Notes under the pieces: generated by a model | Databases searched by the model: none | What the model was told of the DNA's origin: nothing | What the model saw: only the letters and a program-made list of their open reading frames with translations | DNA from: Opitutia bacterium | GTDB lineage: Bacteria > Verrucomicrobiota > Verrucomicrobiia > Opitutales > Opitutaceae | Direction of reading: 5' to 3' | Length of the DNA stretch: 45,834 bases | NCBI GenBank assembly: GCA_947467625.1 | Contig: CANIJN010000009.1 | Location: forward strand, 1 to 45,834 | Part shown: piece by piece, positions 1,547 to 18,578 of the stretch | How positions within the stretch are numbered: the stretch's first letter is position 1 | Layout of the letters: the number at the start of each line of letters is the position of its first letter | Translations under genes and position numbers: made by a program

Positions 1547-1924
1547 ATGAAACCGACGGTCCCGACGATCCCTGCCAACTGCCTCCGCTGCGGAGTGTGT
1601 TGTTTTTCTGAATCGGCGGAATACGTCTGGATCCGTGGTGATGATTGGTCGCGCCTGGGCGACGAGGCGGACCGCCTCGCGCACTTCATCGGACACCGCG
1701 CGTTTATGCGGATGCGCGATGGACATTGCGCGGCGCTCGATGTGCGGGTGACGGCTGACGGCGCGAAGGAGTTTTTTTGTACAATCTACGAGCGTCGCCC
1801 GGAAATCTGCCGCGACCTCGGCCGCGGCTCGCCCGAGTGTGAGGCGGAACTCGAGCTGAAAAGTTGCATCACGAAGGGTCGACCGTCGCCCCGAGACGCC
1901 ACGACCGAGCCATTTGTCACTTAA
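1547..1924 (+). CDS. YkgJ-family cysteine-cluster protein
   Basis: This is a 125-residue protein starting at ATG 1547; a TTG nine bases upstream is in frame but less likely. Near the N-terminus it carries the cluster C12-x2-C15-x2-C18-C19, and further cysteines follow in FFCTIYERRPEIC and in SPEC. This spacing and the ERRPxxCRDL segment are typical of the YkgJ/UPF0153 family (CxxCxxCC), small cytoplasmic proteins thought to bind zinc or an iron-sulfur cluster; their function is not established. The family is usually 100-250 residues, so this is a short, complete member. The stop codon lies inside a 27-base palindrome (1911-1937). It may be cotranscribed with the upstream receptor, but nothing proves it. 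Confidence 0.85.
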   Translation: MKPTVPTIPANCLRCGVCCFSESAEYVWIRGDDWSRLGDEADRLAHFIGHRAFMRMRDGHCAALDVRVTADGAKEFFCTIYERRPEICRDLGRGSPECEAELELKSCITKGRPSPRDATTEPFVT

Positions 1925-1937
1925 TAAGTGACAAATG
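1911..1937. repeat. Perfect palindrome, family GTCACnTA-n-TAnGTGAC, copy 1
   Basis: Two 13-base arms (CATTTGTCACTTA and its exact complement) surround a single central base. It overlaps the stop of the YkgJ-type gene. Related palindromes occur at 11860-11882 and 18558-18578 with the core TGTCACGTA. The T to G change in one arm is matched by A to C in the other, so dyad symmetry is kept. There is no T-run after it, so a rho-independent terminator is unlikely on the plus strand. Confidence 0.8.
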
Positions 1938-10600: not shown

Positions 10601-11609
10601 CGAGTAATTCGCGGAGTTCGGTGGCGCTGAGGGTTTCGAAGCGAGGCGGCAGAGGCGCCGAAGACGGGGAGAGTGGGGAAGACGGGGAAGGCGCGGGCGA
10701 CGGAAGCGGAGGGGGGAAAACGGGGGCGAGGGCGGAGATTTCCCAGAGGTTTTTTTTGCTGCCGAGGCGGAGGCGGAGGGAGCGGAGGGGTGGCGGCGGG
10801 GAGTCGGTGGCGGGTTGAGCTACGAACGTGTTTTCCAGCGAGGCGAAACGCGCGCGCCATTCGGCGAGCTCACGTTCGCGGAGGTAGGCGGCGACGGCGT
10901 GGCGGGCCCAGGCGAGGTCGGTGAGTTTCGCCATGAAGGCGGGGAGCGGGATATTTTTTTCCGTGAAGACGAGGGCGAGGTGCGACCAGAGTTCGAGCGG
11001 CGTGGCGGGCGGGCGGGCCCAGCGGTTATCGAAGGGATTCTGGTAGTAGTTGAAAAACAGATGCCGGTGGGAGGAGGGCAGGAGATTTTGGAGGGCCCGA
11101 TAGTCGAAGTAGCGGGCGTCGCTAAGGCTGCGGTGGAGCGCGAGGAGGTTGCGGAGAAACGTGAGTTGCTTGCGGTCGGGGTCGGCACCGGTGGCGGTGG
11201 TGAACGTGGCGACGAGGGAGGACTCGTCGATCGGTGGGGTGGATTTTGGCGGCGGGGAGGGGGCGAGCGGGATGGGTCGTTCGAAGGGTTGGATGGTGGC
11301 GGCGGCGAGTTGATTGAGGAAGGCGGTGGCGGCGGCGTAGAGGTGTTTGCATTCGTAGCCGACAGGGCAGGAGCAATTGCCGGACCACCCCTCGCCGGGG
11401 TTGTGCGTGAGCGAGCATTCGTAAATTTCGCCGCCTTGAACGGCGGCAAACACGGTCGTGGTGAGCGAATCAATGATTCGTTCGAGGGAGCCGACTTTTC
11501 CCTGAGAATAGTACGCCCGGCCCTTGGTGCGGTCGGCCATCGCGAACTCATTCAGCCAGCCCGCGAGATCGATCCGGAGTTGGGAGGGCGGGGGCGGTAG
11601 GCCGGTCAT
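7656..11609 (-). CDS. SWIM zinc-finger SNF2-family DEAD/DEAH-box ATPase
   Basis: This is a 1317-residue protein from ATG 11609; about 50 extra codons are open upstream but look non-coding. Near the N-terminus, CSCPVGYECKH (Cys79, Cys81, Cys87, His89) is a SWIM zinc finger (CxCxnCxH). A long middle region of about 650 residues is poorly conserved in sequence and proline/alanine-rich. The SNF2 motor starts near residue 780 (LRPYQKEGFHFLAFLSE). Motif I is DDMGLGKT (~807-814), motif II is DEGQ (VILDEGQNIKNP, ~927) in place of DEAQ/DEAH, and LTGTPVEN is motif III. The C-lobe has LVFSQF, GSGLNLTAA and QAIDRTHRIGQ (motif VI, ~1254-1264). A linker between the lobes is Ser/Lys/Pro-rich. Known relatives are ATP-driven DNA translocases that remodel protein-DNA complexes; the bacterial role is unclear. 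The gene is divergent from the neighbouring TBDR. Confidence 0.92.
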   Translation of the reverse strand: MTGLPPPPSQLRIDLAGWLNEFAMADRTKGRAYYSQGKVGSLERIIDSLTTTVFAAVQGGEIYECSLTHNPGEGWSGNCSCPVGYECKHLYAAATAFLNQLAAATIQPFERPIPLAPSPPPKSTPPIDESSLVATFTTATGADPDRKQLTFLRNLLALHRSLSDARYFDYRALQNLLPSSHRHLFFNYYQNPFDNRWARPPATPLELWSHLALVFTEKNIPLPAFMAKLTDLAWARHAVAAYLRERELAEWRARFASLENTFVAQPATDSPPPPLRSLRLRLGSKKNLWEISALAPVFPPPLPSPAPSPSSPLSPSSAPLPPRFETLSATELRELLGAAEHFALTLEPASASFAAILRAHQATSGRTTLKLTDAYDCTFLARLFNHPLARTCIVDEAGRPITRDPRRLVWQFHDHPTDPTLTCAQLGFADGTPAPTPLLHLPAQPDLYLHDATLFTGLPPPRAHASPADVAAPVPVPRAALALPEAGRFASRAGVILPNDTTGRFRHETLRPRLRARLDPRRPAGTDTHSPSDDVMLVELAALAPDSTPRALLAGDTWRRTGPGLPPPPPDAAFLILDFEPTRTATQQFHQLVQTADAWHPDGPRSHVEVTGIHFPETFSTWLAGFPPNTLIELAPELAAFASAPTRAHFAIDLSPGDETGIDWFDVRVTLRAEDTTLTPADLAILHGARGRFVRLAGHGWRRLILDDSTATQEKLARLGLDPATAASETAREPLRFHALQLADESLRDALPEKLWAQVRERSAALRASPAPALPPGLVADLRPYQKEGFHFLAFLSENNFGGVLADDMGLGKTLQTLAWLLHLSALKRPTSSRASAAKSFRVLVVCPKSVMVNWQLETARFAPSLTTTAFTSALITPKPETPNPKPSARSSGSPLSALGTHLLIANYAQLRLYADAFAAESWDAVILDEGQNIKNPASATAAAARALRTAHRLVLTGTPVENRLLDLWSLFSFAQPGLLGGQTAFKRLYNDKSDPAARTRLAQRVKHFLIRRTKSQVARDLPARIEEEIIVDLEGPQRALYDAELKRTRALLLGVKNNREFDSQRFNILQSLLRLRQICCDPRLVGAGELPKSPPKKSGAKSASAGSVLSHSKSKKASASSKSPAASDAQLSAPDSQLSSASPNSLPLPSAKLEALLDTLEPLMAEGHKVLVFSQFVTMLELIRVELTARGIAHLLLSGQTENRQALVDKFQTDPAIPVFLLSLKAAGSGLNLTAASYVVLFDPWWNPAVEAQAIDRTHRIGQKNQVMAYRLIARNTVEEKIRALQKEKAALAAAVVQEESLATVLDLASLRAILA

Positions 11610-11808
11610 TCGGGCAACGAAACAGGGGCGTGCGGGGGCGTCACGGCAGAAGTGGGCGGGGAATAAAAAATGCGCGGAAGCCAGACTACGGCGCGCCGGC
11701 GAGCGGTGGGCCATGATTGAGACCGTCCGCGTTGGCGCCGGCCGCGTTGGCGGCAGCGTCACCGGTTTGCATGCAAATGAAATTCGACCACGTGTTGGCG
11801 AGCTTCGG
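11610..11808. other. Left part of a 379-bp divergent intergenic region
   Basis: This lies between the start of the SWIM/SNF2 gene (minus strand) and the inverted-repeat element at 11809-11925. It probably holds the SNF2 promoter, but no convincing -35/-10 pair was identified. The open frame that continues the SNF2 gene upstream through 11762 lacks domain-like sequence and is not accepted as coding. Confidence 0.4.
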
Positions 11809-11925
11809 CTAGTATTACTCTGTTAAGTTCATTGCCAAAAAAACCGAATTCCCAGAGGGAGTGTCACGTAATACGTGACACTTTTAAGAGACGTTTTTCA
11901 GAGGAAAATAACAGAGTAATACTAG
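11809..11925. mobile_element. 117-bp element with 17-bp terminal inverted repeats (MITE-like or regulatory)
   Basis: CTAGTATTACTCTGTTA (11809-11825) and its exact complement (11909-11925) bound an 83-base interior that contains the palindrome at 11860-11882 and no reading frame. It is far more AT-rich than its surroundings. No obvious target-site duplication flanks it, although both ends finish in CTAG. It lies between a SNF2 gene and a TBDR gene that point away from each other. It could be a miniature inverted-repeat transposable element, or a large cruciform/RNA hairpin controlling the neighbours; only the symmetry itself is directly seen. Confidence 0.6.
11852..11882. repeat. Palindrome family copy 2, with CCAGAGGG lead
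   Basis: CCAGAGGG (11852-11859) is followed by a 23-base perfect palindrome (11860-11882) with arms AGTGTCACGTA around one central base. Together with copy 3 at 18549-18578, the 30-base aligned unit has the same lead and 26 of 30 identical positions. Differences within the arms occur in complementary pairs. Confidence 0.72.
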
Positions 11926-11988
11926 GGCGGACAATTGCGCTGGCCTCTGCGCGGGCTATGGCGTGATGTCCGGAAAACCCCCGTCCCC

Positions 11989-14900
11989 ATGATTACCTCG
12001 TTCCTTCGTCTGATGTCGCTTGCCTTGATCATCGTGTTTGCAGCGGCGTCCGTCGCTGCCGCCGCCACCGGCTCCATCACGGGGCGCGTGCAAAATGTCG
12101 TCACTGGTCAATATCTCAACCAGGCCCGCGTCACGCTGCGCGGCGGCGATCACGTCACGTTTACCGACAACTTCGGCACCTACCGGCTCGTCGACGTCCC
12201 CGCCGGCCCGGCGGTCGTCGAGTTTTTTTACACCGATCTCGATCCGGTCGTCGTGAATCTCACCGTGCCAGCTGGCGGCACGATCGAGCGCCACGTCGAT
12301 CTCACGAGTGCCCAGCGCTACGGGCGCGACGCGACGGCGGTGAAGCTCAACGCGTTCGTCGTCGCCTCCGACAAAGAGACCGATGCGCAGGCGATTGCGA
12401 CCAACGAGCAGCGCTTTGCGCCCAATTTGAAAAACGTGCTCTCGACCGACGCGCTCGGCGATGTGCTCGGCGGCAGCGTCGGCGAGTTCTTGAAATTCAT
12501 GCCGGGCCTCACCGCCGATTTTGACAATGCCGACATCGCGGGCGTCTCGGTACGCGGCCTCGGTGGCGCGATGACCTCCATCACCTCCGACGGCGCGCCC
12601 GCAACCAACATCTGGACCGGCGCCACGCGCACCGTCGATGTGCGCTCGATGGCGCTCAACGACATTTCGCGCATCGAGCTTTCCAAAGTCCCCACGCCCG
12701 CGAACCCCGCAGACTCGCTCGGTGGCTCCGTGAATCTTGTCAGCAAGAGCGCCTTCGAGCGCAGCGGACGGCAGCTCCGCTGGGGCGTCAATGTCGTCGG
12801 CAACCACGAGGCACTCGCGTTCGGTCGCATGCCGCACTCGCAGCGCGATCAGCTCGAGCACACGATTCTTCCCGGCGCGAATTTCGATTTCACGTGGCCC
12901 GTTACGCGCGACTTCGGCGTCGTGATCGCCGGCACCACCACGGAAATCTACAACGAGCAGCACTTCGCGCGCACGACGTGGGCGACGGCGGGCACGGGTG
13001 GCGCCCTCGCCACCGCCTCGCAGACGAATCCCTACCTCCAGTCTTTTTTGCTGATCGACGGCCCGCGCAACATCTCCCGCAATTCCTTCAGCGCGAAGGC
13101 GGACTGGCGCGTCATGCGCCACGGTGTGCTCTCCCTTGGCCACGTCCTCAACCGCTCCACCACGCGCATCGGCGCGCTCCAGCTCACGTTCAACGCCGGT
13201 GCTAACGGCACGCCGACGCCCGCCAACGCCTCGCCCAACGCCACGTGGGATTCCTCGTTTTTCCGCGGCTCCCTCGGCCGCGCGACGATCACCAACAACG
13301 GCACCGCGCAACTGGCGAATCAGAAGAGCGACAACACCAACCTCACGTTCCGCTACGACGACGGCCGCTGGCGGCTCGAGTCCGGTCTCAGCCGTTCCGA
13401 ATCGCGTTTCAAGCGCCGCTACTGGGACGGCGGTTTTTTCTACCAGACCATCGCCACCAACAGTCGTCCGATCCGGATCAACTTCCTCGACATCGCGGGC
13501 GACCACCCCGGCCGCATCGAGGTGTTCGACGCCACCAACCAGCCCTTCGACTGGCGCGACCTCTCGAACTACCGCCCGACCACGACGAACGTGGCCGACA
13601 CCAACACCATCAACCTCGCGGGCAATGGCTACGTGAACGTCCGCCGCCGTCTCGATGTTCTTCCGTTCCCCGCCGCGCTCCAAATCGGCGGAGCCCAGCG
13701 TATCCAGCGCCTCGACACGAATCCGCAGGCGATCAACTTGACGTTCAACGGCCCGGCCAACGCCACCGCCGAGCCTTATGGGATGCAGGTCTATCGCGAC
13801 ATGGATTCCCATTACGGCTACTTCGGCATCGAGTGGATGTCGCCCGTCCGCGTCTTTCAGGCCTATCAGGCCGATCCCACGCTCTACACCAAGACCGAGG
13901 CGCAGCGCTTCGCCGAGGGCAACGCCCGCGTCGATGGCTCCGAGTTCGTGCGCGAGACCGTCCGCTCCGCCTACGTGCAAGCCGACGCCGCTTTTTTCCA
14001 CAACCGCCTCCGCTTCCTCAGCGGCGTGCGTTTCGAGCACACGCACGACGAGGGCCAGGGCGGCCTCAACGACGCCGACGCCGTCTGGCAGCGTGCCGCC
14101 GACGGCTCCTACATCCGCAACGCCGCGGGCCTCCGCGTGCGCAAGCCTGAGGCCGGTGCCGCCAGCTCCTACGCGCAGTTCCTCCTTACGCGGAAGCTGC
14201 GCGCCTCCTTTTCCGACCGCACCTACAGCGGCTACTACCCGAGCGCGCACCTCACGTTCAACGTCACCGAAAATTTCGTGGCCCGCGCCGCGTGGGCGAA
14301 AACCTACGGTCGTCCCAACTTCACCGACATCATCCCCCGCACCGTGGCCACCGCCGCCGACCTCGATGACGACGATCCCGATCCCGTCACCGGCCGCGGT
14401 ACGCTCAACATCCGCAACCCCACGCTACGCCCCTGGACTGCCGACAACTTCGATCTCTCGTTCGAGTATTACACGCCGCAGGGCGGCCTCCTCAGCGCGG
14501 GAGTTTTCCGCAAGGACATCGCCAACTTTTTCGGCGACTCCGCGCGCATCGCCGACACTGCGCTGCTCAACGAACTCGGCCTCGACCCGCGCTACCTCGG
14601 CTGGAACGTCCTCACGAAATTCAACGCTGGCGACGCCCGCATCACTGGCGCGGAGTTCAATGCGCGCCACTCGCTGCGGATCCTCGGCCGATTCGGCGCG
14701 CCGTTTACGGTCTTTGCCAACGCCACCTACCTCGATCTCGACGGTGGCCCGCGCGCGGCGTTCACGAGCTTCGTCCCGAAGAGCGGCAACTGGGGTGCGA
14801 CATTTTCTAACCAGCGCGTGAGCGTGACCGCCCGCTGGAACTACCGCGGCATGGATCGCCGCGCGCCGCAGGCCGTGTTTGGCCCGGAGGGCTACGAGTA

Positions 14901-15102
14901 TTACAAGGAGCGCATCACGCTCGACGTGAACGCCACCTACCAGCTCACACGCCGCCTCTCCCTCGCCGCCAGCGTGAACAACCTCCTCAACGAGCCGCAG
15001 ACCCTCCTCCGCTACGGTCCCGAAACTCCGGCCTACGCGCGCCAATTCCAAGAGACGGAATATGGCATCCAGCTATCCCTCGGCCTGCGCGGAACATTCT
15101 GA
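11989..15102 (+). CDS. TonB-dependent receptor with N-terminal carboxypeptidase-regulatory-like domain
   Basis: This is a 1037-residue protein from ATG 11989, chosen because it gives a clean signal peptide (FLRLMSLALIIVFAAASVAAAA); an in-frame TTG at 11935 adds only a basic leader. After cleavage comes a carboxypeptidase-D-regulatory-like beta domain (GSITGRVQNVVTGQYLNQA to about residue 100). A TonB-box-like stretch (VKLNAFVVASDKETDA) follows, then the plug (LKFMPGLTADFDNADI, GVSVRGLGG, SKVPTPANPADSLGGSVN) and a ~750-residue barrel ending in GLRGTF with the terminal Phe. Such receptors bring large or scarce substrates through the outer membrane. No SusD gene is adjacent, so the carbohydrate-utilisation type of locus is not supported. 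A decayed paralogue lies 0.6 kb downstream. Confidence 0.92.
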   Translation: MITSFLRLMSLALIIVFAAASVAAAATGSITGRVQNVVTGQYLNQARVTLRGGDHVTFTDNFGTYRLVDVPAGPAVVEFFYTDLDPVVVNLTVPAGGTIERHVDLTSAQRYGRDATAVKLNAFVVASDKETDAQAIATNEQRFAPNLKNVLSTDALGDVLGGSVGEFLKFMPGLTADFDNADIAGVSVRGLGGAMTSITSDGAPATNIWTGATRTVDVRSMALNDISRIELSKVPTPANPADSLGGSVNLVSKSAFERSGRQLRWGVNVVGNHEALAFGRMPHSQRDQLEHTILPGANFDFTWPVTRDFGVVIAGTTTEIYNEQHFARTTWATAGTGGALATASQTNPYLQSFLLIDGPRNISRNSFSAKADWRVMRHGVLSLGHVLNRSTTRIGALQLTFNAGANGTPTPANASPNATWDSSFFRGSLGRATITNNGTAQLANQKSDNTNLTFRYDDGRWRLESGLSRSESRFKRRYWDGGFFYQTIATNSRPIRINFLDIAGDHPGRIEVFDATNQPFDWRDLSNYRPTTTNVADTNTINLAGNGYVNVRRRLDVLPFPAALQIGGAQRIQRLDTNPQAINLTFNGPANATAEPYGMQVYRDMDSHYGYFGIEWMSPVRVFQAYQADPTLYTKTEAQRFAEGNARVDGSEFVRETVRSAYVQADAAFFHNRLRFLSGVRFEHTHDEGQGGLNDADAVWQRAADGSYIRNAAGLRVRKPEAGAASSYAQFLLTRKLRASFSDRTYSGYYPSAHLTFNVTENFVARAAWAKTYGRPNFTDIIPRTVATAADLDDDDPDPVTGRGTLNIRNPTLRPWTADNFDLSFEYYTPQGGLLSAGVFRKDIANFFGDSARIADTALLNELGLDPRYLGWNVLTKFNAGDARITGAEFNARHSLRILGRFGAPFTVFANATYLDLDGGPRAAFTSFVPKSGNWGATFSNQRVSVTARWNYRGMDRRAPQAVFGPEGYEYYKERITLDVNATYQLTRRLSLAASVNNLLNEPQTLLRYGPETPAYARQFQETEYGIQLSLGLRGTF

Positions 15103-18548: not shown

Positions 18549-18578
18549 CCAGAGGGTTTGTCACGTATTACGTGACAA
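18549..18578. repeat. Palindrome family copy 3, with CCAGAGGG lead
   Basis: CCAGAGGG (18549-18556) is followed by the 21-base perfect palindrome 18558-18578, with arms TTGTCACGTA around one base. It is in the same orientation as copy 2. It sits between the TBDR pseudogene and the second SNF2 gene, about 70 bases before the chosen SNF2 start. The in-frame GTG at 18579 directly abuts it. Confidence 0.72.

What the first reader, a model, noticed from the sequence alone, without database searches (positions are those of the whole stretch)
11809..11925. 117-bp AT-rich element with perfect 17-bp terminal inverted repeats and a central palindrome
Exact 17-bp ends around an 83-base interior with a second palindrome form a compound symmetrical element without coding capacity. 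It is either a MITE derived from an unknown transposon or a large cruciform/RNA structure in the divergent SNF2-TBDR promoter region.
Basis: seen in the sequence. Interest (0 to 1): 0.5.

Follow-up and report, generated by a model that had tools for sequence, protein, structure and literature searches.

The report
Miniature transposon carrying a shared palindrome
The 117-base element looks like a small non-coding transposon spread by an IS701-type transposase in relatives of Opitutus, and its centre is a palindrome that these bacteria also hold at many other places, some of them in frame inside genes.

Summary
The 17-bp ends read best as a 4-bp target duplication (CTAG) plus a 13-bp terminal inverted repeat (TATTACTCTGTTA). 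The element is multi-copy: 14 near-full-length copies at >=82% identity in the own genome and full-length copies in five congeners. A sister species has the empty site at this very locus, with 4 bp where the element lies here. That sister carries an IS701-family insertion sequence, read in pieces, with identical 13-bp ends. Less ordinary is the centre. The palindrome is the best conserved part of the element. It also occurs outside it, as singles, phased pairs and quartets, in Opitutia genomes. Many such sites lie at orthologous places in several species, and some sit in frame inside genes such as rlmN. Three sequence variants each occur both inside and outside such elements. What reads or moves the palindrome is not known.

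The parts
11809..11812 (.). left copy of the 4-bp target duplication (CTAG)
   Evidence: empty site has 4 bp (CTGG) at this point; 44 aligned copies
11813..11825 (+). left 13-bp terminal inverted repeat TATTACTCTGTTA
   Evidence: identical to both kinds of end of the IS701-type IS in G004
11826..11859 (+). left inner arm, partly complementary to the right arm
   Evidence: folds; 73% mean pairwise identity over 44 copies
11860..11882 (.). central 23-bp palindrome AGTGTCACGTA-A-TACGTGACACT
   Evidence: 93% mean pairwise identity, most conserved segment; 49 sites within 3 mismatches in the own genome
11883..11908 (+). right inner arm
   Evidence: 72% mean pairwise identity
11909..11921 (-). right 13-bp terminal inverted repeat
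11922..11925 (.). right copy of the 4-bp target duplication (CTAG)
11989..15102 (+). TonB-dependent receptor gene next to the insertion (context, not part of the element)
   Evidence: Pfam PF00593, PF07715
7656..11762 (-). SNF2-type helicase ORF next to the insertion (context; start codon uncertain)
   Evidence: Pfam PF00176, PF00271
18559..18577 (.). same 19-bp palindrome elsewhere in the window
1915..1933 (.). variant palindrome TGTCACTTAATAAGTGACA elsewhere in the window

Best explanation
The element is a non-autonomous miniature transposon (MITE) of IS701 type. A transposase supplied in trans acts on the 13-bp ends and inserts the element into CTAG-like sites, duplicating 4 bp. In this genome no such transposase was found, so the copies are probably immobile now; in the sister genome G004 an IS with the same ends exists. 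The centre of the element is a palindrome of a kind that Opitutia genomes also hold outside MITEs. I think the palindrome is a separate short module, kept symmetrical by selection or by hairpin-templated mutation, which the MITEs carry at their dyad centre. Shown: copies, one empty site, 4-bp duplication, ends shared with an IS701-type IS, palindrome inside and outside the element. Inferred: mobilisation in trans by that transposase, the order of events, and any role of the palindrome.
For: 14 near-full-length copies >=82% in the own genome, the window's included. Full-length copies in 5 congeners; 11 of the 38 genomes of that search, own included, have any match. Empty site at the same locus in G004, filled in G001. 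44 copies: left and right 4-mers agree directly at 124 of 176 positions against 111.9 on shuffling (p about 0.001); CTAG is the commonest 4-mer on both sides, 13 and 18 of 44. Similarity stops at the ends: 27-28% in 30-bp flanks against 72-93% in ends, arms and palindrome. G004 has a 421-aa transposase, NCBIfam NF033540 'IS701' 344 bits (cut-off 150) and Pfam DDE_5, preceded by CTAG-TATTACTCTGTTA; two further contigs end inside the 3' end of the same IS, also bounded by TATTACTCTGTTA. IS701: 'almost all elements' duplicate exactly 4 bp (PMC2266710, passages). Two more distant IS701-type transposases in G006 are preceded, in both copies, by TTCTACTTTGTTA about 100 bp upstream, 10 of 13 bases alike.
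Against: MITE and IS share only the 13-bp ends, so the MITE is not a simple internal deletion of that IS. No transposase match in the own genome at E<=1e-10. Only 11 of 44 copies have identical 4-bp flanks (6.6 expected by shuffling, p 0.02), and read as inverted repeats the same 4-mers agree at 114 of 176 positions, CTAG being its own complement. Only one empty site was found, and its 4 bp are CTGG, not CTAG. Left and right ends of the IS lie on different contigs, so no complete IS was read; the flanks of its two 3' ends (TTTT, CTAT) do not look like CTAG. The G006 end is a 3-mismatch match, and such matches occur elsewhere in the same loci.
Confidence: 0.9

Rival explanations
1. A regulatory cruciform or structured RNA of the divergent SNF2/TonB-receptor region.
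For: Very stable fold, z about -8; palindrome most conserved; one promoter-like match at the element's left end pointing towards the SNF2 gene, 0.1 expected in the region.
Against: Multi-copy at unrelated loci; the orthologous locus in G004 lacks it with both flanks present; no Rfam match at E<=1; no terminator-like site.
Confidence: 0.05
2. A REP/BIME-type repeat moved by a RAYT (REP-associated tyrosine transposase).
For: Short palindromes, in pairs about 45-47 bp apart and quartets outside the MITEs; PF01797 genes are present in all 9 genomes searched.
Against: 0 of the 30 PF01797 loci held (of 40 matches) have the palindrome in the stretch held, up to 1.5 kb each side; genomes without exact palindromes (G002, G005) have PF01797 genes too. 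For the MITE itself ends and 4-bp duplication fit a DDE transposase.
Confidence: 0.08
3. The palindrome is an operator or architectural binding site of a dedicated DNA-binding protein, with dialects, and the MITE captured it.
For: Sites at orthologous places in several species; T-dialect or mixed arms at the same places in G006; regular spacing; two-sided changes.
Against: Copy number 0 to 67 among related genomes. Orientation of neighbouring genes is near-neutral: 13 convergent, 14 divergent, 23 tandem, 13 inside ORFs, 1 undetermined of 64 clusters, by a crude caller and with some MITE-borne sites among them. Family-A MITEs in G006 keep the G-dialect. Some orthologous places have a degenerate palindrome.
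Confidence: 0.3
4. The palindrome is passive: its symmetry is kept by hairpin-templated mutation (template switching; recalled mechanism), and it spreads by duplication inside MITEs and tandem units.
For: Two-sided G-C to A-T change between the orthologous copies L034 and L057; tandem units of about 77 bp; degenerate orthologues.
Against: Does not by itself explain why so many non-MITE sites are kept at orthologous places with flanks at 68-98% identity (biased, since these loci were fetched because they hold palindromes).
Confidence: 0.3

Closest known systems
MITEs of insertion sequences; parent family IS701
   Same: Short, non-coding, terminal inverted repeats shared with an IS701-type IS, 4-bp duplication, multi-copy, empty site
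   Different: Only the 13-bp ends are shared with the IS found; a recurrent central palindrome with at least three sequence variants
Rickettsia palindromic elements
   Same: Palindromic repeat also found in frame inside protein genes
   Different: RPEs are about 150 bp (PMC10969869, passages); here the conserved word is about 19-23 bp, several times in pairs 45 bp (15 codons) apart, in Opitutia, and it also forms the centre of a MITE; no homology was tested
ERIC / RUP / Correia-type small palindromic elements (recalled, not compared)
   Same: Roughly 100-130 bp imperfect palindromes, multi-copy, mostly intergenic
   Different: Other hosts, other ends; not compared by sequence
REP/BIME elements of RAYTs
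   Same: Palindromes in regular pairs
   Different: No palindrome beside any of the 30 PF01797 loci held

Membership tests
MITE | short, no coding capacity, terminal inverted repeats | tested here: met
   (no ORF of 100 aa lies within it; the end of the mechanical ORF 11524-11826 reaches into it)
MITE | many copies at unrelated loci | tested here: met
MITE | target duplication and empty site | tested here: met
   one empty site only
IS701-derived MITE | ends identical to those of an IS701 element | tested here: met
   13 of 13 bp at both kinds of end; transposase NF033540
IS701-derived MITE | 4-bp duplication | tested here: met
   family rule from PMC2266710 passages
IS701-derived MITE | moved in trans by the transposase | not testable with these tools
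   needs a transposition assay
REP/RAYT | RAYT gene flanked by the repeat | tested here: not met
   0 of 30 loci held; 40 matches in all
Protein-coding palindromic element (RPE-like; the palindrome, not the MITE) | in frame inside unrelated genes | tested here: met
   45 of 306 distinct palindromes in frames with coding signal on both sides; rlmN residues 209-245 against 1 residue in 6fz6
Protein-coding palindromic element (RPE-like; the palindrome, not the MITE) | sequence homology to Rickettsia elements | not tested
   -
Intrinsic terminator | G+C-rich hairpin followed by a T run | tested here: not met
   0 found in 11600-12100, 0.6 expected; neighbours not enriched for convergent genes
Known structured RNA | Rfam match | tested here: not met
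   no match at E<=1 for 11300-12400

The most novel reading that the evidence does not exclude
Opitutia carry a palindrome-recognising system (a binding protein, nuclease or recombinase not yet identified) with lineage-specific dialects of its site (TGTCACGTAWTACGTGACA, TGTCACTTAWTAAGTGACA, TGTAACCTATTNGGTTACA). Its sites are kept at orthologous places, in phased pairs and quartets and even in frame inside genes such as rlmN, and IS701-type MITEs have taken up each dialect at their centre and act as vehicles that spread the sites.
Probability: 0.3. Interest if true: 0.75.

Novelty: new variant of a known kind. Interest (0 to 1): 0.48.

Why it matters
The MITE itself is an ordinary kind of thing. 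The link is not: one short palindrome is the most conserved part of a transposon and also a recurrent site in many Opitutia genomes, often at the same place in several species and sometimes inside coding genes. If the palindrome has a partner protein, its dialects and its presence or absence across genomes could identify it, and the MITEs would be a natural experiment in spreading binding sites. It would also extend in-frame palindromic insertions, described for Rickettsia, to Verrucomicrobiota.

Tried and rejected
Known RNA family: none at E<=1. Plasmid origin: no match among 72,556 plasmid records at E<=0.01. RAYT: not favoured. A transposon with these ends inside the own genome: the 14-bp end pattern (<=2 mismatches) has 27 hits against 4 in the control; 26 are the ends of 13 family-A copies and one (C131) belongs to a related element; the transposase query had no match in G000. 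A second empty site was sought among the loci held and at L034: none found; L034's flanks are themselves repeats. The palindrome in G002: 400 kb read, 12 perfect 8-bp-stem/3-nt-loop palindromes, about as many as in three shuffles (10, 11, 12), none with the TAWTA centre. Literature: no paper holds both 'IS701' and 'YTAR'; two hold 'MITE', 'IS701' and 'miniature inverted-repeat' (listing only); none holds the palindrome letters or the peptides CHVIRD/CHVLRD; four hold 'palindromic', 'repeat' and 'Opitutaceae' (listing only). That CTAG fits a YTAR preference of IS701 is recalled, not from a call.

Caveats on my own counts. The classification printed puts two TTGTCACTTAATAAGTGACAA elements (L134, L138) into class A, lists some copies twice and admits only elements with at least 8 of 9 pairs, so I use only its pair table, which is biased towards pairing. 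The 44 copies were found by similarity to the window's copy, which favours copies with a well-kept palindrome. A less biased check: of 15 G006 places fetched for the end sequence (L123-L137, chosen by me from hits outside family-A copies; not all such hits) 13 have a central palindrome, at least two of them imperfect (L128, L132), and two (L131, L133) have none. Gene calls are from a crude script.

Full report
OBSERVATION. The sequence at 11809-11925 is as described: 17-bp perfect inverted arms, 83 bases between, and a perfect 23-bp palindrome at 11860-11882. Twenty base shuffles of the whole window never gave a perfect inverted repeat longer than 12 bp at a gap of up to 120. The fold is extreme (RNA z -8.0, DNA z -7.7). 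G+C is 37% against 64% in the window. Neighbours are an SNF2-type helicase (minus strand) and a TonB-dependent receptor (plus strand, ATG at 11989).

COPIES. In the own genome there are 14 near-full-length copies at >=82% identity, the window's included, and a fifteenth at 74%. Of the 38 genomes of the relatives search, own included, 11 have a match. Full-length copies are listed in five congeners (G001, G003, G006, G007, G008); in G004, and in the three other genera whose matches are listed (G011, G012, G014), the listed matches cover the core or part of the element only; the query range of a weak match in G029 (8.4e-4) was not listed. 44 copies in context have 72-93% mean pairwise identity in ends, arms and palindrome, 63-65% in the outer 4 bp and 27-28% in the flanks.

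EMPTY SITE AND TARGET DUPLICATION. The orthologous locus in G004 has the right flank (475 bp, 96%) and the left flank (98 bp at 91%; further out it has an extra segment of about 100 bp), and exactly 4 bp (CTGG) where the window has CTAG-element-CTAG. G001 has the element there with CGAG/CTAG. Over 44 copies the left and right 4-mers agree directly more than chance (124 of 176; shuffled mean 111.9; p about 0.001; read as inverted repeats 114), with direct pairs such as CTAA/CTAA and CGAG/CGAG that are not inverted repeats; 11 of 44 are identical. So the outer CTAG belongs to the target, and the terminal repeat is 13 bp, TATTACTCTGTTA.

PARENT. In G004 the 13-mer occurs four times without mismatch (the control pattern has 3 hits at up to one mismatch). 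One occurrence precedes a 421-aa transposase gene (CTAG-TATTACTCTGTTA, then the ORF) that scores 344 bits against NCBIfam IS701 (cut-off 150) and matches Pfam DDE_5. Two others bound the 3' end of the same IS at contig ends; the fourth (L121) gave no transposase match. 'Almost all' IS701 elements duplicate exactly four bp (PMC2266710, passages). The transposase has matches in 4 of 9 genomes of the genus and none in G000. Two distant IS701-type transposases in G006 are both preceded by TTCTACTTTGTTA. The MITE shares only its ends with the IS.

RELATED ELEMENTS. Searching by the ends gave, in G006, elements of about the same length with other interiors: family B with GTGTAACCTATTNGGTTACAC at the centre and family C with TTGTCACTTAATAAGTGACAA. 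Of the 15 G006 places fetched this way 13 have a central palindrome. Among 18 distinct central palindromes, four of nine pairs show changes on both sides, one of them in a single palindrome (elements with fewer than 8 of 9 pairs were left out by the script). In the orthologous copies L034 and L057 the same pair is G-C in one and A-T in the other. The palindrome is the most conserved segment, 93% against 79-82% for the ends and 72-73% for the arms (copies found by similarity, so somewhat biased).

THE PALINDROME OUTSIDE THE ELEMENT. In G000 49 sites match GTGTCACGTAWTACGTGACAC within 3 mismatches, MITE copies included, the reversed control 0. Counts of exact TGTCACNTAWTANGTGACA in the genus run from 0 (G002, G005) to 52 (G006); for another pattern 67 in G014, 20 in G007, 5 in G012, 0 in G011. 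Outside MITEs the sites are single, in pairs often 45-47 bp apart (also 54-58, 65, 77 and more), or in 7 of 19 G014 loci in quartets spaced about 46-55-46. Of 347 distinct palindromes in loci held, 51 lie between two TIR-like sequences, 67 have one and 229 none; random places: 13, 160 and 1592 of 1765. The B palindrome too occurs both ways, once as a 47-bp pair. Of the 20 G000 loci fetched for such sites (L099-L118, a few of them MITE-like), 16 have an orthologous place in another species held, with flanks 68-98% identical; at some the palindrome there is degenerate (L118/L338) or differs in number (L100, L101), and at the same places G006 carries T-dialect or mixed arms where G000 has the G-dialect (L104/L171, L106/L187, L109/L170). 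These loci were fetched because they hold palindromes, so losses are under-counted.

IN GENES. 45 of 306 distinct palindromes lie in a reading frame with coding signal on both sides, 38 in the frame that reads CHV[IL]RD or its T-dialect form and 7 in the next frame. The first frame is the only one free of stops on both strands, so part of this preference is stop avoidance. In rlmN of G000 and G008 a pair 45 bp apart is read in frame; G004 has one 45-bp unit fewer, still in frame. Against the solved RlmN 6fz6 the G000 protein aligns up to residue 208 and again from 246, 37 residues against one. Others sit between domains: receiver and DNA-binding domain of a response regulator (L172), exosortase and DUF3485 (L184), the two parts of a lipase maturation factor (L181). 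This resembles the in-frame insertions of Rickettsia palindromic elements (PMC10969869, passages), though the elements differ in size and no homology was tested.

MECHANISM AND LIMITS. The MITE part is well supported except for the assay. For the palindrome three readings remain: a site with a protein partner, a passive hairpin kept symmetrical by templated mutation, or an unknown mobile module. RAYTs are not favoured (0 of 30 loci), nor is a terminator or simple operator, given the near-neutral orientation of neighbours. I found no paper with these words in the library searched.

Noticed in passing
L101 (G000), L234 (G008), L328 (G004), L367 (G007): rlmN carries one or two palindromes (in frame in L101, L234 and L328; L367 seen only as an orthologous place), in L101 within a 37-residue insert against the solved RlmN 6fz6; other genes too (L100/L169 helicase-like by eye, L104/L171 glycosyltransferase, L172, L181, L184, L102, L103).
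   Followed up: partly
window 1915-1933 and 18559-18577: Two further palindromes of the same kind in this window, one of each dialect.
   Followed up: partly
L149, L154, L156, L158, L163, L164, L165 (G014): Quartets of the palindrome with spacing about 46-55-46 bp; the middle spacer has (C/A)GAGGGA in six of the seven, on one strand or the other (L163 has AGAGGGG).
   Followed up: partly
L107, L113, L335: Palindromes in what look like tandem units of about 77 bp, in G000 and G004.
   Followed up: no
L034 283-374 and 616-790: Two other abundant repeat families next to a MITE copy, with many matches in G001, G003, G004, G007 and G008.
   Followed up: no
L364 833-898 (G006): A pair of B-type palindromes 47 bp apart, same spacing as the other dialects.
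   Followed up: no
L140, L143 (G006): Distant IS701-type transposases (34-40% identity) both preceded by TTCTACTTTGTTA, from which point the two copies are alike.
   Followed up: partly
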